Assembly: GCA_043817485.1 (NCBI GenBank)
Contig: JBDRGX010000016.1
Span: 1 to 9,367 of the forward strand
Reading direction: 5' to 3'
From: JBDRGX01 sp043817485 [NCBI: bacterium]
Lineage (GTDB): Bacteria > JBDRGX01
Length of the DNA stretch: 9,367 nucleotides
Part shown: piece by piece, positions 59 through 9,173 of the stretch
Layout: each line of letters starts with the position of its first letter
Numbering within the stretch: the first letter of the stretch is position 1
Translations under genes and position numbers: made by a program
Notes under the pieces: generated by a model
Told to the model about the DNA's origin: nothing
What the model saw: only the letters and a program-made list of their open reading frames with translations
The model's database searches: none

Positions 59-727
59 ATGAAAAATATTATAATAGCACCTTCTATTTTATCTGCTAAT
101 TTTAATAATCTTGAAAAAGATATAAAATTAGTAGAAAAAGAAAATTTATCTTGGCTTCATTTAGATGTTATGGATGGTCTTTTTGTCCCTAATATTTCTT
201 TTGGGCAGCCAATAATAAAATCAATACGAAAAATATCTAAATTATTTTTTGATGTCCATTTAATGATAACAGAACCTATTAGATATATTGAAAATTTTGT
301 TGATTCTGGCGCTGATTTAATTACCATTCACATAGAAGCTTGTGAAAATGTTAGTGCCACTATTAAAAAAATAAAAAAATATCAAAAAAAAGTTGGATTA
401 GCTTTAAATCCTTTAACTCCTTTAGAAAAAGCTATTCCTTATTTAAAAGAATTAGATTTACTTTTATTAATGAGTGTTAATCCTGGATTTGGAGGGCAGA
501 AATTTATAGAATCAGTTTTTCCTAAAATAAAAAAAGCAAGAAATCTGATTAATCAATTTAATAAAAATATTGAATTAGAAGTAGATGGAGGCATATTTAA
601 AGAAAATATTTGTTCAGTAATAGAACAAGAAGCAAATATTTTAGTTATGGGTTCTGCTATTTTCGCTCAACCAAATATAAGTAAAACAATAAAAGAAATA
701 AAAAAAATATTAAAGAAAGGTTATTAA
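59..727 (+). CDS. rpe: ribulose-phosphate 3-epimerase
   Basis: This cytoplasmic TIM-barrel enzyme interconverts ribulose 5-phosphate and xylulose 5-phosphate in the pentose phosphate pathway. From the ATG at 59 it is 222 residues, the usual family length, and begins with the typical strand [15 protein letters not shown]. The metal and catalytic residues are in place: the HLDVMDG motif at 34-40 (His34, Asp36, Asp39), His67 in FDVHLM, and Asp176 in VDGGI. The phosphate-binding [11 protein letters not shown] motif is also present. An in-frame TTG at 23 would add 12 residues, but that TTG is part of the putative -35 box and the extra residues have no family counterpart, so 59 is preferred. No Shine-Dalgarno is seen. 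The gene opens the operon and ends one base before hisI. The assignment is secure. Confidence 0.96.
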
Positions 728-728
728 A

Positions 729-1070
729 TTGGAACAAATAAATTTGGAACAATTAAAATTTAATGAACAGGGATTAATTCCAGCTATTATTCAAGATTAT
801 AAAACTAATGAAATTTTAATGATGGCTTATATGAATAAAGAATCATTTGAAAAAACTTTATCAAGTGGTAAAACATGTTTTTTTAGTCGTTCACGACAAA
901 AATTATGGCTTAAAGGAGAAACTTCTGGAAATTTTCAATTAGTAAAAGAAATTTATCTTGATTGCGATAATGATACTTTATTAATTAAAGTAAATCAAAT
1001 AAATGTTGCTTGTCATACAGGGAATAGAAGTTGTTTTTTTAAAAAAATAAAAGAGAATGTAAGTGAATGA
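729..1070 (+). CDS. hisI: phosphoribosyl-AMP cyclohydrolase
   Basis: HisI opens the purine ring of phosphoribosyl-AMP to give ProFAR, the third step of histidine synthesis, in the cytoplasm. The protein is 113 residues, which is the stand-alone cyclohydrolase; the HisE pyrophosphohydrolase domain fused to it in E. coli is absent. The signature DCDNDTLL at 78-85 supplies the Mg ligands Asp78, Asp80 and Asp82. Cys79, with Cys95 and Cys102, forms the zinc site across the dimer interface in known structures. [19 protein letters not shown] at 51-69 is the other conserved block. The start is TTG, supported by AAAGG at 716-720, 8 bases upstream. It follows rpe by one base and overlaps ligA by 8 bases. 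No other his gene lies in the window, so the histidine genes are presumably dispersed. Confidence 0.95.
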
Positions 1071-2340
1071 TGAAAAACTTAAAAAAAAAATTGAAATATT
1101 AAAAAAAGAAATTGAATATCATAATTATTTGTATTATGTAGAAAACAAACCAATAATTTCAGATTTTAAATATGATATGTTGATAAAAAAATTAGAGGAT
1201 TGTGAAAAAATATTTTCTCAATTTGTTATTTCTACTTCTCCAACGCAAAAAGTAAATGAACAAGTTATCAATCAATTTAAAATAATTTCCCATCGTCTAC
1301 CAATGTTAAGCCTTTCTAATACTTATTCTATTAACGAAATAAAAGAATTTCATAACCGTGTTCTTAAAATAATTCCCGAACAAGAATTAGAATATATAAC
1401 TGAATTAAAAATAGACGGAATTGCTATAAGTTTAATTTATGAAAATGGTGTTTTTACTCAAGGAATAACTAGAGGAGATGGAGAAAAAGGAAATGATGTA
1501 TTTTCCAATCTTTTAACTATTAAATCTATTCCATTAAAAATTTTTTCTGATGTTCCAAAAATTTTAGAAGTAAGAGGAGAAGTTTATCTTTCTAAAGATG
1601 TTTTTTATAAAATAAATGAAGAAAAAGGAATGAAAAATCAAGAATTATTTGCTAATCCTCGTAATGCTGCTGGTGGTTCTTTAAAATTACTTGATCCTTC
1701 TATGGTTGCTAAAAGACATTTAGATATTTTTATCCATTCATCTGGTTTTATAAGTGAAAAAATATTTAAAACTCAAATAGAAATGTTTGATTCTCTTAAA
1801 AAAATGAATTTTAAAATAAATCCTTATTATAAATTATGCAAAAATATTCAAGAGGTAATATTTTTTTGTCAAGAATGGGAAATGAAAAGAAATAGTTTGC
1901 CATATCAAATAGATGGAATTGTTATTAAAGTTAATTCTTTTGAAGCACAAAATATTTTAAGTCATACTACTAAAAATCCTCGTTGGGCAATTGCTTTTAA
2001 ATTTACTGAACATCAAATTACTACAAAATTAAAAGATATTATTATTCAAGTAGGTAGAACAGGCATTTTAACACCTGTAGCAATTTTGGAACCAGTAGAA
2101 TTAGATGGTTCCACAATTAGTAGAGCTACTTTACATAATCAAAATGAAATTAAAAGAAAAGATCTAAAAATTGGAGATACTGTAATTATTGCAAAAGCTG
2201 GAGATGTAATTCCTAAAATTGTAGAAGTAGTAAAAGAAAAAAGAACAGGACAAGAAAAAGAATTTATATTTCCAGATAAATGTCCAGTATGTGGAAGTAA
2301 AACAATTTCAATTGAAAAAAAAAGTAGCTATAATATGTGA
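1063..2340 (+). pseudogene. ligA: NAD-dependent DNA ligase, N-terminal two thirds (frame broken at 2315-2323)
   Basis: LigA seals nicks in DNA using NAD, joining Okazaki fragments and finishing repair. This frame encodes the Ia domain (about 1-65, with Tyr24, Asp34, Tyr37 and Asp38 in the NMN-binding block), the adenylation domain with the nucleophilic Lys116 in ELKIDG, the ANPRNAAGGSL and QIDGIVIKVNS motifs, the OB fold (WAIAFKF to AGDVIPKIVEVV), and the first zinc-finger pair Cys407 and Cys410. It then hits a 9-A run and stops at TGA 2338-2340 after 425 residues. The continuation lies one frame over, at 2324-3088. With one A removed the whole gene encodes 674 residues, against 671 in E. coli, with no domain lost. 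The start is GTG, overlapping hisI by 8 bases, with only a weak GAG upstream. Every active-site motif is intact, which argues against long-standing decay. The frameshift could be an assembly indel, a recent mutation, or a slippage site. Confidence 0.93.
2315..2323 (+). other. 9-A homopolymer frameshift site in ligA
   Basis: Nine consecutive A bases follow GAA's G at 2314. The upstream frame reads GAA AAA AAA AGT and terminates at TGA 2338. The downstream frame reads AAA GTA GCT and continues for 255 codons. Removing one A (or adding two) joins the frames and gives a normal zinc finger with four cysteines, C-x2-C, linker, C-x4-C. The run is a plausible place for a sequencing indel, and also for RNA polymerase slippage, which is known to rescue poly-A frameshifts in AT-rich insect endosymbionts. 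Confidence 0.8.
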
Positions 2341-3088
2341 TAATATAAATTGTTCATCTCAAATTCAAAGAAAAATAGAACATTTTTCTTCTCGTCAAGC
2401 AATGAATATAAGAGGTTTAGGACAAGCAATTATTTATCAACTTGTAAAAAATAATAAAATAAAAGATTTAGCAGATATTTATACATTAAAAAAAGATGAA
2501 CTTATTTGTTTAGAAAGAATGGAAGAAAAATCAGCGCAAAAATTAATTGATGCTATAAATAAAAGCAAAAATAATTCATTAGAACAATTTATTTTTGGAT
2601 TAGGAATTCAATATGTTGGAATTCATATTGCTCATATTTTAACTTCTAATTTTTCTTCAATTGATGAAATATCAAATACTTCTAAACAAGAATTTGAAAA
2701 AATAAAAGGATTAGGAGAATCTATTATTTTTTCTTTAGTTGAATTTTTTAGTAAAGAAGAAATAAAAAATCTTATTCAAAAATTTAAAGATTATGGAATA
2801 AATACAAAATCAGAAAAAAAATTAGAAACAAAAAAATTATTATTATCAGGAAAAATATTTGTATTTACTGGAGAATTAAAAAAATTTTCTCGAGTTAAAG
2901 CAAGTCAATTAGTAATAAATTTAGGAGGAACTGTTTCTTCTTCTGTAAATAAAAATACTTCTTTTTTAGTTTGTGGAGAAAATCCTGGTTCTAAATATCA
3001 AAAAGCAAAATCTTTAGGAATAAAAATTATTGAAGAAAGTGAATTTGAAAAAATAATAAATAATGAAAAAATAGGAGATGTATTTTGA
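2324..3088 (+). pseudogene. ligA: NAD-dependent DNA ligase, C-terminal third (zinc finger, HhH, BRCT)
   Basis: This is the continuation of the same ligase gene in the next frame. It begins with the second zinc-finger pair, VAIICDNINC, with cysteine codons at 2336 and 2351. The helix-hairpin-helix region follows, with IRGLGQAII, LERMEEKSAQKLIDAI, FIFGLGIQYVG and IKGLGESI, which grips DNA around the nick. The last part is a BRCT domain starting near GKIFVFTGELKKFSR and including LGGTVSSSVNKNTSFLVCGENPGSK. An in-frame ATG at 2291 exists, but it lies inside the upstream reading frame with no Shine-Dalgarno and no family support, so I do not take it as a real start. The TGA stop at 3086-3088 overlaps the TTG start of pdxA by four bases. 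A stand-alone C-terminal fragment would have no ligase activity, because the adenylation domain is on the other side of the break. Confidence 0.92.
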
Positions 3089-4089
3089 TACAAAAACCAA
3101 TTGTTGGTATTACATTAGGAGATATTGCTGGAATAGGTCCAGAAATTGTTATAAAATCTTTATTAGATGAAGAAATTATATCGGCTTGTAATCCCTTAAT
3201 AATAGGCGATATAGAAGTTTTTAAAGAAACTCTTAAAAATCTTTCTATTACTTTCCCTTTAAATTATTGTCAAAATTATGAAGAAGCAAAATTTGAAAAA
3301 GAAAAAATAAATATAATTGGTATTAGTTCTTTTTCTCCAAATGATTATACTAAAGGAAAAATTAATTTATTAACAGGAAAAGCTTCTTTAGAATATATTA
3401 AAAAAGGAATTCAATTATCTTTAGAAAAAAAAATAGATTTATTAGTTACTGCACCAGTGAACAAAGAATCTATAATTAAATCTGGGTTTATATTTTCTGG
3501 ACATACAGAATATTTAGCTAATTTATCTCATGTTAAAAAATTTGCTATGATGTTAGTAAGTGAAAATTTAAAAGTAGTTTTAGCAACTACACATTTACCT
3601 TTAAAAAAAGTAAGTACAACACTTTCTTCTTTAAAAATATATGATACTATAATGCTTACTTATGATAGTTTAAAACAATATTTTGGTTTATCTAATCCAA
3701 CAATAGGAGTATCGGGATTAAATCCTCATTGTGGAGAAGGTGGATCTATCGGCAATGAAGAAATTACACAAATAATCCCAGCCATTTTAAAAGCACAAAA
3801 AAAAAATATAAATGTACAAGGCCCTTTTCCAGCAGATACTTTATTTGTAAAAGAAAAATTATCTAAATTTGATGCTATTATTACAATGTATCATGATCAG
3901 GGAATGATTCCTATAAAAATGAATGGTTTTGGAAAAGCTGTAAATATTACATTAGGTTTACCATTTATTCGCACTTCTCCAGATCATGGAACTGGATTTG
4001 ATATAGCTGGTAAAAATATAGCCAATCCAGAAAGTTTAAAACAAGCAATAAAATTAGGAATAAAAATAAAAAAGGAAAGTAAATGTTAG
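3085..4089 (+). CDS. pdxA: 4-hydroxythreonine-4-phosphate dehydrogenase
   Basis: PdxA oxidises 4-hydroxy-L-threonine 4-phosphate with NAD. The product, after decarboxylation, is condensed by PdxJ with deoxyxylulose 5-phosphate to make pyridoxine phosphate (vitamin B6). The protein is 334 residues, against 329 in E. coli. The opening GITLGDIAGIGPEI, the TAPVNKE loop and SGHTEYL are typical. The three metal-binding histidines are His170 (ATTHLPL), His215 (GLNPHCGEGG) and His270 (MYHDQG), each offset by four from the E. coli positions as I recall them. The C-terminal NITLGLPFIRTSPDHGTGFDIAGK block is intact. The start is TTG, backed by AGGAGA at 3073-3078. It overlaps ligA by 4 bases and mutS by 7. 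A 10-A run at 3797-3806 is in frame. Some PdxA paralogues (PdxA2) act on other phosphorylated hydroxy acids, but this sequence follows the classical form. Confidence 0.93.
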   Translation: MIQKPIVGITLGDIAGIGPEIVIKSLLDEEIISACNPLIIGDIEVFKETLKNLSITFPLNYCQNYEEAKFEKEKINIIGISSFSPNDYTKGKINLLTGKASLEYIKKGIQLSLEKKIDLLVTAPVNKESIIKSGFIFSGHTEYLANLSHVKKFAMMLVSENLKVVLATTHLPLKKVSTTLSSLKIYDTIMLTYDSLKQYFGLSNPTIGVSGLNPHCGEGGSIGNEEITQIIPAILKAQKKNINVQGPFPADTLFVKEKLSKFDAIITMYHDQGMIPIKMNGFGKAVNITLGLPFIRTSPDHGTGFDIAGKNIANPESLKQAIKLGIKIKKESKC

Positions 4090-6716
4090 ATTTAAGTCCT
4101 TTAATGCAACAATATCATCAAATTAAAAAAGATTATCAAGATACAATTTTAATGATTAGAATAGGTGATTTTTATGAAACATTTTATGAAGATGCAAAAA
4201 TTGCTTCATCAGTATTAGATATTGTTCTTACATCAAAGCCAGTAGGTAAAAATCAAAGAGTGCCTTTGGCTGGCATTCCTCATCATACAGCTGATTCACA
4301 TATTAATATTTTAACAAAGGCTGGTTATAAAGTAGCAATTTGTGAACAAATAGAAGATGCAAAATTAGCCAAAGGAATAGTAAAAAGAGAAGTTGTCAGA
4401 GTAATTACATCTGGAACAATACTTTCAGATGCAATTTTAGAAAATAAAAAAAATAATTTTTTAATTGCTATTAATAAAGAAAAAGAAAATTTATTTGGAT
4501 TAGGAATTATAGATTTTTCCACAGGTGATTTTTTAATAACAGAAATAGATTCTCAAGATAAATTAGCAAATGAAATTATTCGGCTTTCTCCAGCAGAATG
4601 TCTTTTAAAAGAATCTTTATTTGAAGATAAAGAATTTATTACTTTTTTACAAAATACTTATGAAAATATAAAAATAGAAAAAATAGAAGATTGGATTTTT
4701 AATTTAGATTATTCAAAAAATTTATTAAAAGATCATTTTAAAGTAAATTCATTAGATGGATTTGGATGTGAAAATTTTTCTTCTGGAATAGGTGCTTGTG
4801 GAGCAATTCTCTCGTATCTTAAAAAAACTCAAAAAAATTCTATTTCTCATTTGACTTCTTTAAAACCATATTTTTTAGAAAATTTTATGTGTCTTGATAA
4901 ATCTACACAAATAAATTTAGAACTAATTAAAACATTTAGAGACAATGAAAAAAAAGGTAGTCTACTTTGGGTGATAGATGAAACTATTACTTCTATGGGT
5001 GGAAGAAAAATTAGAGATTGGTTATTACATCCTCTTTTGATTTTAACAGAAATTCAAATGCGACAAGATGCTGTACAAGAATTTTATAATAACACTTCTT
5101 TAACTTCTGAAATTAGAACAATTTTGGGCTCTGTTTATGATATTGAAAGATATATTGCTAAAATATGTTCTAATGCTGGTAATGCAAGAGATCTTCTTGC
5201 TTTAGGAAAATCTTTTTCTGTAATTCCTAAAATAATTCAAAAAATTAAATTTCTTGAATCATCAATTTACAAAACTTTTTTTTTAGAAACAGATTTTTTA
5301 GAAAAATTAGGAAACATAATACTTTCAGCCATATTTGAAAATCCTCCTTTATCTCTTAAAGAAGGTGGTTTAATTAAATTTGGATTTGATCCAGAAATAG
5401 ATGAATTACAAAAAATTATAAAAAATGGAAAACAATGGATAGTCGAATTTGAAGCAAAAGAAAAACAAAAAACACAAATAAATTCTTTAAAAGTAAAATT
5501 TAATAATGTTTTTGGATATTATATTGAAATAACTAAACCAAATCTTTCTTTAGTACCAAATGATTATATTAGAAAACAAACTATTTCTACGGGAGAAAGA
5601 TTTATTACAAGCGAATTAAAAGATTACGAAAATAAAATTCAAAATGCAAATGAAAAACTTTATAAATTAGAATATGAAGTTTTTCAAAATATTTGTAATG
5701 AAGTAAAAAAGGATTCAGATAAAATTCAAAAAATTGCTCATACTTTAGCTTCTATAGATGTAATTAGTAGTTTATCTATAGTCGCACATAATAATCATTA
5801 TTGTAAGCCACAACTTACAACAGAAGCAATTTTAAAAATAAAAGATTCTCGACATCCAGTATTAGAAAAAATATTTATAGAAGAAAAATTTGTTCCTAAT
5901 GATATAGATATGGATATAGAACAAAATCAAATAATGATTATTACAGGTCCTAATATGGCTGGAAAATCTACATATATTAGACAAATTGCTTTAATTGTTT
6001 TACTTGCTCAAATAGGCAGTTTTGTCCCAGCAAAAAATGCTATAATTGGATTAGTAGATAGAATTTTTACTCGAATAGGAGCATCAGATTTTTTAATTAA
6101 AGGACAATCTACTTTTATGGTTGAAATGAATGAAACATCTAATATTTTGCATAATGCTACTTCAAAAAGTTTAATTATTTTAGATGAAATAGGTAGAGGT
6201 ACAAGTACTTTTGATGGAATTAGTCTTGCTTGGGCAATAGCAGAATATATTCATAATAAAATAAAAGCAAAAACACTTTTTGCAACTCATTATAATGAAC
6301 TTACTGAATTAGAAATTTTATTTCCTAAAATCAAAAATTATAATATAGCAGTTAAAGAATGGAATGAAGAATTAATTTTTTTAAGAAAAATTTTAAAAGG
6401 ATCAGCAGATAAAAGTTATGGAATTCAAGTTGCTCGTTTAGCTGGATTACCAGAAGAAGTGATTACAAGGGCAAAAGAAGTTATGAATAATTTAGAAAAT
6501 ATTGAAATAGACAAAAATGGTTCTCCTAATTTAGCAAAATCAGAATTTGATGAAAAAGAAAAAATTTTACAATTAAATTTATTTGCTATTCAAGAAAATC
6601 AAGAAAATAAAGAAAAAATAATAAGAGAATTAGAAAAATTAGATATTAATAATTTAACCCCAATTCAAGCTTTTAATGAATTACAAAAAATTAAAGAAGA
6701 ATTGAAAAATATATAA
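4083..6716 (+). CDS. mutS: DNA mismatch repair protein MutS
   Basis: MutS binds mispaired or looped-out bases in new DNA and, as an ATP-switched clamp, recruits MutL. It has 877 residues, against 853 in E. coli. The mismatch-recognition domain (about 1-115) has the Phe30-x-Glu32 wedge in GDFYETF, which marks MutS1 rather than MutS2 or other non-repair paralogues. The connector (about 125-250), the lever and clamp (about 260-560) and the ATPase domain follow. Walker A is GPNMAGKST at 622-630, the STFMVEMNET loop comes next, Walker B is LIILDE with Asp701 and Glu702, and FATHYNEL follows. The tail INNLTPIQAFNELQKIKEEL resembles the E. coli tetramerisation helices. The ATG start overlaps the pdxA end by 7 bases and has AGGAAA at 4073-4078. 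It is the last gene of the operon. No mutL lies in this window. Confidence 0.97.
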   Translation: MLDLSPLMQQYHQIKKDYQDTILMIRIGDFYETFYEDAKIASSVLDIVLTSKPVGKNQRVPLAGIPHHTADSHINILTKAGYKVAICEQIEDAKLAKGIVKREVVRVITSGTILSDAILENKKNNFLIAINKEKENLFGLGIIDFSTGDFLITEIDSQDKLANEIIRLSPAECLLKESLFEDKEFITFLQNTYENIKIEKIEDWIFNLDYSKNLLKDHFKVNSLDGFGCENFSSGIGACGAILSYLKKTQKNSISHLTSLKPYFLENFMCLDKSTQINLELIKTFRDNEKKGSLLWVIDETITSMGGRKIRDWLLHPLLILTEIQMRQDAVQEFYNNTSLTSEIRTILGSVYDIERYIAKICSNAGNARDLLALGKSFSVIPKIIQKIKFLESSIYKTFFLETDFLEKLGNIILSAIFENPPLSLKEGGLIKFGFDPEIDELQKIIKNGKQWIVEFEAKEKQKTQINSLKVKFNNVFGYYIEITKPNLSLVPNDYIRKQTISTGERFITSELKDYENKIQNANEKLYKLEYEVFQNICNEVKKDSDKIQKIAHTLASIDVISSLSIVAHNNHYCKPQLTTEAILKIKDSRHPVLEKIFIEEKFVPNDIDMDIEQNQIMIITGPNMAGKSTYIRQIALIVLLAQIGSFVPAKNAIIGLVDRIFTRIGASDFLIKGQSTFMVEMNETSNILHNATSKSLIILDEIGRGTSTFDGISLAWAIAEYIHNKIKAKTLFATHYNELTELEILFPKIKNYNIAVKEWNEELIFLRKILKGSADKSYGIQVARLAGLPEEVITRAKEVMNNLENIEIDKNGSPNLAKSEFDEKEKILQLNLFAIQENQENKEKIIRELEKLDINNLTPIQAFNELQKIKEELKNI

Positions 6717-6852: not shown

Positions 6853-6890
6853 ATTCCACCCCCTACCCCCGCCAGCGGGGGACATTTGAA
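6853..6890. repeat. GC-rich palindromic repeat, copy 1
   Basis: ATTCCACCCCCTA is followed by the palindrome CCCCCGCCAGCGGGGG at 6866-6881, with arms CCCCCGC and GCGGGGG around CA, and then by ACATTTGAA. A near-identical element, with an AAAA insertion before the palindrome, lies at 7125-7157. The very high G+C in an AT-rich spacer, and the two copies within 300 bases, suggest a REP-like dispersed repeat. It is not followed by a T run, so it does not read as a classic terminator. Confidence 0.75.
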
Positions 6891-6931
6891 ATTTTAATAT
6901 GCTTTTTTATAAAATTTATTTTCTAACTTTT

Positions 6932-6951
6932 GTCAGCAGGGGACATTTGAA
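6932..6951. repeat. decayed partial copy of the GC-rich repeat
   Basis: GTCAGCAGGGGACATTTGAA matches the right half of copy 1 (6871-6890) at 18 of 20 positions; the differences are C to T at the second base and G to A at the seventh. It lacks the left CCCCC arm, so it cannot form the palindrome. It looks like a truncated or diverged copy of the same element. Confidence 0.6.
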
Positions 6952-7003
6952 GCATGAAGAAAATAATTAATGTTTCACGCCTATGTTGTAAAAATGAAAC
7001 TAT

Positions 7004-7124: not shown

Positions 7125-7157
7125 ATTCCACCCCCTAAAACCCCCGCCAGCGGGGGA
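7125..7157. repeat. GC-rich palindromic repeat, copy 2
   Basis: ATTCCACCCCCTAAAA precedes the palindrome CCCCCGCCAGCGGGGG at 7141-7156, which is identical to copy 1. The leader is the same as in copy 1 apart from three or four extra A bases. The right flank differs: ATATAAG replaces ACATTTGAA, so the shared element ends at about the A after GGGGG. Having the leader and palindrome in both copies, but not the right flank, helps set the boundary of the unit. Confidence 0.75.
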
Positions 7158-7176
7158 TATAAGAAATAAACAAGAA

Positions 7177-7353: not shown

Positions 7354-8124
7354 ATGAAAACAAAATCTGTATATCATTTAGGATTAAGTAAAAAAGATAT
7401 TGAATCAGCTAAATTTGTTTTTTTACCGGGAGATCCAGCAAGAGTAGAAAAAATAGCAAAAAGTTTTGATTCTCAATCTAAATTTTTAATTCAAAAAAGA
7501 GAATATTGTAGTTATTTAGGAAAAATAAATAATGTACCTATTTTAGTAACTTCTACTGGAATTGGAGGAGCATCTACTTCTATTGCTGTTGATGAATTAT
7601 CTCAATTAGGTATAAAAACATTTCTTCGTGTAGGTACTACTGGTGCTATTTCTCCAAAAATAGAAATAGGAGATGTTATTATTACTACTGGATCTGTTCG
7701 TTTAGATGGTGTTTCTAATCATTATGCTCCTATTGAATATCCCGCAGTATCTTGTTATGAAGTTATTGATGCTTTAGTAAAATCATCTATAAAAAGCAAA
7801 ATAAAATTTCATGTAGGAATTACAGCATCAAGTGCTACTTTTTATCCAGGACAAGAAAGGTATGATTCTTATTCTAAATATGTAATTAGAAATTTTCAAG
7901 GATCTAATTTAGAATGGGAAAAATTAAATGTTTTAAATTATGAAATGGAATCAGCCACTTTACTTACTATGGCAAGTGCTTTTGGATTAAAAGCTGGTTG
8001 TATTACTGGAGTAGTTAATAAACGAGTAAAAAGCGAAAAAATTACTAAAAAACATTTAGAAATGGGTGAAAAAAATGTTATTGAAGTAGCAATTGAAGCA
8101 ATGAAAATTTTAATAAAAAATTAA
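7354..8124 (+). CDS. udp: uridine phosphorylase
   Basis: Udp splits uridine with phosphate into uracil and ribose 1-phosphate, salvaging pyrimidines in the cytoplasm. The protein is 256 residues of the NP-I nucleoside phosphorylase fold. Its residues follow E. coli Udp closely: His8, Gly26 and Arg30 fall at the same numbers, and Arg49, Arg92 and Thr95 complete the phosphate site. Gln167 and Arg169 in FYPGQERYD are the uracil-recognising pair that separates Udp from purine phosphorylases. Glu197-Met198-Glu199 in NYEMESATL bind the ribose. SVRLDGVSNHYAPIEYPAV is nearly the E. coli sequence. GGAGG precedes the ATG. It faces the sugar kinase, and the two stop codons overlap on TTAA at 8121-8124. 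Codon usage is as AT-rich as in its neighbours, so any transfer was not recent. Other nucleoside specificity is possible but less likely. Confidence 0.94.
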   Translation: MKTKSVYHLGLSKKDIESAKFVFLPGDPARVEKIAKSFDSQSKFLIQKREYCSYLGKINNVPILVTSTGIGGASTSIAVDELSQLGIKTFLRVGTTGAISPKIEIGDVIITTGSVRLDGVSNHYAPIEYPAVSCYEVIDALVKSSIKSKIKFHVGITASSATFYPGQERYDSYSKYVIRNFQGSNLEWEKLNVLNYEMESATLLTMASAFGLKAGCITGVVNKRVKSEKITKKHLEMGEKNVIEVAIEAMKILIKN

Positions 8125-9173
8125 CTTTCCCAAACTCTTAATCCATGACGACTAAGATAAATAGGAATATTTTTAAATAAAGGATTTATTTCTTCAATTT
8201 CTTTTATCATTTTTCTTTTCTCATAAAAAAGATTATTACAAAGTAATGTAATAGAACCACCATCTCCTCCAGCACCATTTACTTTCCAACCAGCAACATT
8301 ATATTTTTTAGCTATTTTAATTATTTCATAAGCATCTTTACTTACAATCTCTGGATGAAGTGTTGCTTGTATTTCTGTATTTTGACACATTATTTTGCCT
8401 AATTCTTTTAAATTTCCAGAATAAAGAGCATTTTTTGATTTTTCAGCAAATTTTCTTAACTTTTCTAATTTTTCATTTTTTGCTCCAACAGATTCTAATT
8501 CTTTAATTACTTTTTGATGTACTGCTGAAGAAACATGAGATTTGCCTAAAAAAATTAAAGTTAATCTTTTTTCTAATTCCCACCAAATTGAATTAGAAAT
8601 TTCTATTTTAGAAACTGTAACAAATGGATATTTTGTCATTTCAATAAAATTAATACCACCATAAGCTGAACAAAATTGATCTTGAATTCCACATTGTTGA
8701 GAAAGCATTTTAGTTTCAATCATTTGAGCAGTATAAGCTACTTCATGAGGAGTCATTCGCCCAGGAGTAAGATGGTCTAATGCTCCAATTAAAGCAACAG
8801 TAACAGCAGCTGAAGTTCCAGTAGAACAACCAGTTGGAGCTTCTGAATAAATAATTACTTTTAAAGAAACATTATAAGGAATTTTCATATATTTAATAGC
8901 TGCTTCTAATAAAGGATGTTGAGTCCATTTTTTATTTTTTTCATGATTGATAGTATATTTATCACCATAATTTTCTGCTTGAATAATAATTTGATTTTCT
9001 TTTTCAGTAGAAGCATATACTTCTATTTGTACTTCTACATAAGGATAAACTGCAATATTAAATACTTTTCCATATTCAGCAAACCAAGTATCAGTCCAGC
9101 CACCATTATCACAAATTCTAATAGGAGCAATGCTATTAATGACTTTTATTCTTTTTTCTGTTTTTTTATTCAT
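8121..9173 (-). CDS. GHMP-superfamily sugar kinase (fucokinase / heptose-7-phosphate kinase-like)
   Basis: This 350-residue protein should transfer phosphate from ATP to a sugar or sugar phosphate. The N-terminal APIRICDNGGWTDTWFAEYG (16-35) matches the sugar-binding start seen in fucokinases and D-glycero-D-manno-heptose 7-phosphate kinases (HddA type). Motif 2 is PTGCSTGTSAA at 113-123, in place of the usual PxGxGLGSSAA. GIQDQFCSAYGGINFIEM from 162 is the GxQDQ block shared with HddA and fucokinase, with Asp165 the likely catalytic base. Motif 3 is GAGGDGGS at 300-307, a variant of GAGGGGF. The ATG at 9171-9173 has AAGGAA 6 bases upstream and a promoter-like sequence further up. A role in nucleotide-sugar supply for surface glycans would fit the family, but no neighbour supports it. 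The substrate is unknown, so no gene symbol is given. Confidence 0.85.
   Translation of the reverse strand: MNKKTEKRIKVINSIAPIRICDNGGWTDTWFAEYGKVFNIAVYPYVEVQIEVYASTEKENQIIIQAENYGDKYTINHEKNKKWTQHPLLEAAIKYMKIPYNVSLKVIIYSEAPTGCSTGTSAAVTVALIGALDHLTPGRMTPHEVAYTAQMIETKMLSQQCGIQDQFCSAYGGINFIEMTKYPFVTVSKIEISNSIWWELEKRLTLIFLGKSHVSSAVHQKVIKELESVGAKNEKLEKLRKFAEKSKNALYSGNLKELGKIMCQNTEIQATLHPEIVSKDAYEIIKIAKKYNVAGWKVNGAGGDGGSITLLCNNLFYEKRKMIKEIEEINPLFKNIPIYLSRHGLRVWES

What the first reader, a model, noticed from the sequence alone, without database searches (positions are those of the whole stretch)
1063..3088. Essential ligA split by a one-base shift in a 9-A run
All LigA domains are present and intact on both sides of the break, and removing one A at 2315-2323 restores a 674-residue protein with a normal four-cysteine zinc finger. 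LigA is essential in nearly all bacteria and no second ligase is seen here. The options are a sequencing or assembly indel, a recent null with another ligase elsewhere, or production of full-length protein by RNA polymerase slippage on the A run, as reported in AT-rich insect endosymbionts. The last would be biologically interesting.
Basis: partly seen in the sequence, partly recalled or inferred. Interest (0 to 1): 0.6.

Follow-up and report, generated by a model that had tools for sequence, protein, structure and literature searches.

The report
DNA ligase gene, one base out of frame
The gene for an essential DNA-joining enzyme is cut in two on paper by one extra A in a run of nine; the rest of the gene looks healthy, so this is most likely a sequencing error or a very recent slip rather than a new way of making the protein.

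Summary
ligA (1063-3088) reads as an N-terminal ORF (1063-2340, 425 aa) and a C-terminal ORF in the +1 frame, meeting at nine A (2315-2323). Joined there they give a 674-residue LigA with a C-x2-C-x14-C-x4-C zinc finger. Of 130 homologous loci carrying both halves, 128 keep them in one frame; one (G155) is broken elsewhere in the gene and one has its halves far apart. Where flanks align exactly, 42 of 42 loci have 15 bases at the site; the window has 16. The downstream half keeps 22 of 22 near-invariant residues. So any loss is very young, or not in the organism at all. I found no close relative, reads or whole genome, so consensus error and young real indel cannot be separated. RNA-polymerase slippage at A9 could leak full-length protein: an A inserted into an 8-A run was bypassed in E. 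coli (PMC3812077). But slippage at A runs mostly adds one base, and here that stops translation at once; rescue needs a net loss of one or gain of two. Nothing found marks it as conserved or programmed, and the insect-endosymbiont analogy has no taxonomic support. Low interest unless reads confirm nine A.

The parts
1063..2340 (+). ligA upstream ORF: Ia, adenylation and OB domains plus the first two zinc-finger cysteines; 417 native residues, then EKKSSYNM and stop
2315..2323 (+). run of nine A where the reading frame changes; one base longer than the length that keeps LigA in one frame
   Evidence: homologues have 15 bases where the window has 16
2324..3088 (+). ligA downstream part in the +1 frame: last two zinc-finger cysteines, HhH and BRCT domains; open to the normal stop that overlaps pdxA
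   Evidence: 22 of 22 near-invariant residues kept
2312..2314 (+). TTG, a possible but weak start codon for separate translation of the C part (other candidates in that frame: GTG 2291, ATG 2402)
   Evidence: no convincing ribosome-binding site, judged by eye
1081..1090 (+). second long A run (ten) near the start of ligA, in frame
729..1070 (+). hisI-type phosphoribosyl-AMP cyclohydrolase, overlaps the ligA start
3085..4089 (+). pdxA, overlaps the ligA stop; has in-frame A9 and A10 runs
4083..6716 (+). mutS, overlaps the end of pdxA; has in-frame A8, A8 and T9 runs

Best explanation
The organism's ligA is an ordinary full-length, working NAD+-dependent ligase gene. The ninth A in the run at 2315-2323 is a homopolymer length error: either in the consensus sequence (somewhat more likely) or a very young or segregating replication-slippage insertion in part of the sampled population. 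Shown: the frame break, the intact domains, the single site, the conserved length in homologues. Inferred: that the intact allele is the one the population lives on.
For: Both halves are in one frame in 94 of 94 loci compared first (89 distinct proteins, several loci per genome in places) and in 128 of 130 on the full set; the two others are L161/G155, broken at another place, and L003, halves 5.9 kb apart; ten loci with only the N half were left out. Spacing at the site is 15 bases in 42 of 42 loci whose flanks align exactly, 16 in the window. In a phylum sample of 147 genomes, 138 matched: 120 give one LigA match of at least 600 residues and one more a single 710-codon frame (counted by hand). 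The C half keeps 22/22 near-invariant residues and has no stop in 254 codons; three stops would be expected after about 0.05-0.06 neutral substitutions per site. The break sits in one of ten coding runs of eight or more A or T; the other nine lie in frame. Broken ligA turns up in other MAG contigs too: G155.
Against: No reads, sequencing platform or same-species sequence was available, so the error itself is not shown. If the data are short reads, an A9 consensus error is uncommon (general knowledge). In one long-read study deletion errors were the ones tied to homopolymers, while insertion errors were not tied to any particular homopolymer (PMC12007338, passages); here the run is one too long. 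The other nine long coding runs show no error. The G155 break is not at an A run (longest there 5 A), so it is no precedent for this kind of error. C-half identity to 106 homologues is slightly lower than N-half identity predicts (residual -0.024, sd 0.019; 8% of others lower).
Confidence: 0.72

Rival explanations
1. The nine-A allele is real and carried by the whole population. Enough full-length LigA is made by accidental slippage of RNA polymerase (or the ribosome) at the run: transcripts with net -1 or +2 A read on into the HhH and BRCT domains, the rest end as a protein of about 425 residues that can be adenylated but does not ligate.
For: A9 is long enough: slippage in vivo at nine A or T is reported, and 12-50% corrected transcripts in two endosymbionts (PMC5009743, passages). 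An A inserted into an 8-A run of M.HaeIII, which needs the same direction of correction (my inference), was bypassed at basal expression in E. coli (PMC3812077, section 11). Blochmannia vafer has eight genes with homopolymer frameshifts, including the replication genes dnaX and dnaG (PMC3017870, passages). The C half is fully conserved.
Against: The favoured +1 slip reads into an immediate stop (frames); insertions far outnumber deletions at A/T runs and no transcription error that restored a reading frame was seen (PMC5574713, passages); E. coli RNA polymerase gave no deletions on the poly(A) runs examined with a gfp reporter (PMC6260861, passages). Ribosomal -1 shifting cannot help: that frame stops at once. 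The 81 bases downstream fold no better than shuffles (z -0.61). No evidence that the organism is a host-restricted endosymbiont.
Confidence: 0.17
2. ligA has just been inactivated and another ligase elsewhere in the genome (second LigA or an ATP-dependent ligase) does its work.
For: The frame is broken as written, and the truncated form ends almost exactly where LigN-deltaC (residues 1-417) ends, which was adenylated but ligase-inactive (PMC1684257, passages).
Against: No decay seen in the C half. The gene is tightly packed in a row with hisI, pdxA and mutS. No other ligase among the eight window ORFs scanned, though the genome could not be searched.
Confidence: 0.06
3. A true two-part ligase: the C part is translated separately from a weak start (TTG 2312 or GTG 2291) and pairs with the N part, in the manner of the split NAD+ ligase of bacteriophage T5.
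For: A split NAD+ ligase of phage T5 is mentioned in PMC1684257 (passage). A start codon lies just before the A run in the C frame.
Against: The split would divide the four-cysteine zinc finger between two chains. No good ribosome-binding site (by eye). No homologue is divided at this site. An attempt to rebuild LigN activity from two pieces failed because the C part could not be stably expressed (PMC1684257, passages).
Confidence: 0.03

Closest known systems
Bacterial NAD+-dependent DNA ligase LigA (TIGR00575 / NF005932)
   Same: All domains in order, four-cysteine zinc finger with the common 14/4 spacing, near-invariant C-half residues kept
   Different: Reading frame changes by one base at an A9 run inside the zinc finger
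Homopolymer frameshifts in Blochmannia and Buchnera genes thought to be rescued by transcriptional slippage (PMC3017870, passages; Tamas 2008 and Wernegreen 2010 seen only in its reference list)
   Same: AT-rich sequence (24.6% GC), essential replication gene, single indel in a long A run, gene otherwise intact
   Different: No conservation of the shift across relatives shown; no reads or RNA; no sign of kinship; rescue would need net -1 or +2
Laboratory A insertion in the 8-A run of M.HaeIII (PMC3812077, section 11)
   Same: Run lengthened from eight to nine A, bypassed in E. coli at basal expression
   Different: Plasmid-borne methyltransferase; full-length LigA production not shown here
Split NAD+ ligase of bacteriophage T5 (mentioned in PMC1684257)
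   Same: N and C parts of an NAD+ ligase encoded apart
   Different: No sign of separate translation; homologues found here are single-chain

Membership tests
LigA | Adenylation, OB, zinc finger, HhH and BRCT in order | tested here: met
   on the two parts; zinc-finger cysteines
LigA | One uninterrupted reading frame | tested here: not met
   128 of 130 homologous loci with both halves are in one frame, one is broken elsewhere, one has its halves far apart
Slippage-rescued homopolymer frameshift | Indel in a long A/T run with the gene otherwise intact | tested here: met
Slippage-rescued homopolymer frameshift | Shift conserved across related strains or species | tested here: inconclusive
   Absent at this site in distant homologues; no close relative found
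Slippage-rescued homopolymer frameshift | Mixed run lengths in mRNA or full-length protein | not testable with these tools
   No RNA or protein data
Programmed -1 ribosomal frameshift (dnaX type) | -1 frame leads to the functional product | tested here: not met
   The -1/+2 frame stops after KK
Split (T5-type) ligase | Separately translated C-terminal chain | tested here: inconclusive
   Weak start codons only
Sequencing or assembly error | Reads support a different run length | not testable with these tools
   No reads available

The most novel reading that the evidence does not exclude
A fixed nine-A ligA in an AT-rich, little-known bacterial lineage, whose essential ligase is made only from the minority of transcripts with net -1 or +2 A. 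Chromosome replication would then depend on polymerase error, with the truncated, adenylated protein as the main product.
Probability: 0.12. Interest if true: 0.55.

Novelty: new member of a known kind. Interest (0 to 1): 0.2.

Why it matters
If reads confirmed nine A, it would extend homopolymer-slippage rescue of essential replication genes, described in insect endosymbionts, to another bacterial lineage. As it stands it is mainly a caution: in AT-rich contigs a broken essential gene with an otherwise pristine sequence should be checked against reads first.

Tried and rejected
Looked for close relatives. The first genome-contig scan found none. One 32-base degenerate DNA pattern beside the run, which tests close relatives only, had no match in viral contigs. 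Three phylum samples (9, 5 and 147 genomes) and three handle sets gave near-full-length matches of at most 54% identity (LigA N part) and 52% (MutS); short conserved pieces of MutS reached 70%. The organism stays unidentified.

Gene order: no fetched locus showed the rpe-hisI-ligA-pdxA-mutS row. Only L012 has a hisI relative (62%) in the same stretch as ligA, 3.2 kb before it. Many loci were too short to test this.

Contigs of G163 and G035 seemed at first to break ligA at the same place, but both simply end there.

No unusually stable structure was found in the 81 bases after the run. Rfam had no match at gathering scores.

The in-frame count now names G155 (L161), fetched.

Full report
What is there. 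The window (24.6% GC) carries rpe, hisI, ligA, pdxA and mutS in one direction, each abutting or overlapping the next, then a 637-base gap, a uridine phosphorylase and, on the minus strand, a GHMP kinase. ligA reads in two pieces: 1063-2340, and a +1-frame ORF that ends at 3088. They meet at nine A, 2315-2323.

The gene is otherwise intact. The N part covers positions 1-409 and the C part 405-652 of the 652-position LigA model TIGR00575. Joined at the run they give 674 residues and the zinc finger C-x2-C-x14-C-x4-C; the 14/4 spacing was found in 75 of 94 homologous loci, 12 gave no match to the simple pattern and 7 had other spacings. Among loci whose two matches end and start at the same residues as the window's flanks, 42 of 42 have exactly 15 bases between them, where the window has 16 (several loci can come from one genome). 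In the 14 relatives printed these codons are not an A run, so the run probably grew in this lineage from lysine codons (inference).

No homologue shares the break. Of 94 loci with both halves close together, 94 had them in one frame (89 distinct proteins). On the full set fetched later, 130 loci have both halves: 128 in one frame, L161 (genome G155) not, and L003 with its halves 5.9 kb apart; ten loci with only the N half were not counted. The stops met inside six of 106 distinct one-piece homologues all lie at residue 665 or later, the gene's own end. In 147 genomes of one phylum sample, 138 matched: 120 with a single match of 600 residues or more and one more (G140) in a single 710-codon frame; the other 17 were partial or split across contigs, except G155, whose ligA changes frame within one contig with part of the HhH region missing (hand count, and the tool left some further matches unlisted). 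Fourteen of the 120 rows are flagged with one stop inside the match; in the five of these that I fetched the first stop after the start of the match is at codon 659-669, the normal end, the other nine were not checked. So broken ligA copies do turn up in MAG contigs, about one in 122 here, but that one is not at an A run (longest run nearby 5 A).

Age. The C half keeps 22 of 22 residues that are at least 95% conserved among 106 homologues. The N half keeps 61 of 66, which equals the lowest of the 106. No stop has arisen in 254 codons, while three would be expected after roughly 0.05-0.06 neutral substitutions per site (the AT-biased spectrum is a toy). C-half identity is slightly lower than N-half identity predicts, but 8% of other sequences are lower still. 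If function was lost, it was lost very recently.

Which frame changes would rescue it. Net -1 (eight A) or +2 (eleven A) reaches the C frame. Net +1, and ribosomal -1 shifting, read into an immediate stop. This matters because transcription insertions dominate at A/T runs: in Buchnera 151 of 157 insertions but only 16 of 57 deletions were in homopolymers, and no error that restored a frame was seen (PMC5574713, passages). E. coli RNA polymerase showed no deletions on the poly(A) runs examined with a gfp reporter (PMC6260861, passages). On the other side, an A inserted into an 8-A run, which needs the same direction of correction, was bypassed at basal expression in E. coli (PMC3812077, section 11), and 12-50% corrected transcripts are cited for two endosymbionts (PMC5009743, passages). 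So leaky rescue is physically plausible if the allele is real, but nothing found marks it as programmed: no unusual structure in the 81 bases downstream (z -0.61) and no conservation.

What the truncated product would do. It ends eight residues after residue 417. [quoted passage not shown] By analogy the 425-residue product would not seal nicks.

Who it is. No whole genome is held. Scans found no close relative. LigA is at most about 52% identical over its length to anything found and MutS at most 52% over its full length. Trees place the window on a long branch beside L010, a contig labelled Thermoplasmatales archaeon but carrying a LigA of bacterial type, and, in the second tree only, also beside L098-L101 (genomes G015, G001, G013 and G014, the small phylum sample reached through the Omnitrophota-labelled locus L051), without strong support. 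There is no kinship evidence for an insect endosymbiont.

Judgement. The finding describes the sequence correctly. The most likely cause is a homopolymer length error in the consensus, or a very young or segregating indel; a slippage-dependent fixed allele remains possible at about one in six. Reads would settle it. One literature search on ligA, frameshift, homopolymer, DNA ligase and slippage (304 papers held four of the five terms, ten seen as a listing; the term also matches words such as ligand) showed no report of such a ligA, which is weak evidence of absence.

Noticed in passing
window 6865-6892, 6926-6953, 7140-7167: Three copies (71-100% alike) of a 28-base element, two with the GC-rich palindrome CCCCCGCCAGCGGGGG, in the otherwise AT-rich gap between mutS and the uridine phosphorylase.
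   Followed up: no
window 8121-9173: GHMP kinase resembling heptose 7-phosphate kinase HddA but far below the NCBIfam cut-off (91.8 against 600 bits); the one relative found in viral contigs is in a 235-kb IMG/VR contig, L117, 48% identical.
   Followed up: partly
L161 about 5570-5690 (genome G155): A ligA broken within one contig by a frame change with part of the HhH region missing, not at an A run.
   Followed up: partly
L010: Contig labelled Thermoplasmatales archaeon carries a complete LigA of bacterial type, among the closest to the window's (52%); misbinning or transfer.
   Followed up: no
window 384-5284: Ten coding runs of eight or more A or T in 8.5 kb of genes; all but the one at 2315-2323 lie in frame.
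   Followed up: yes
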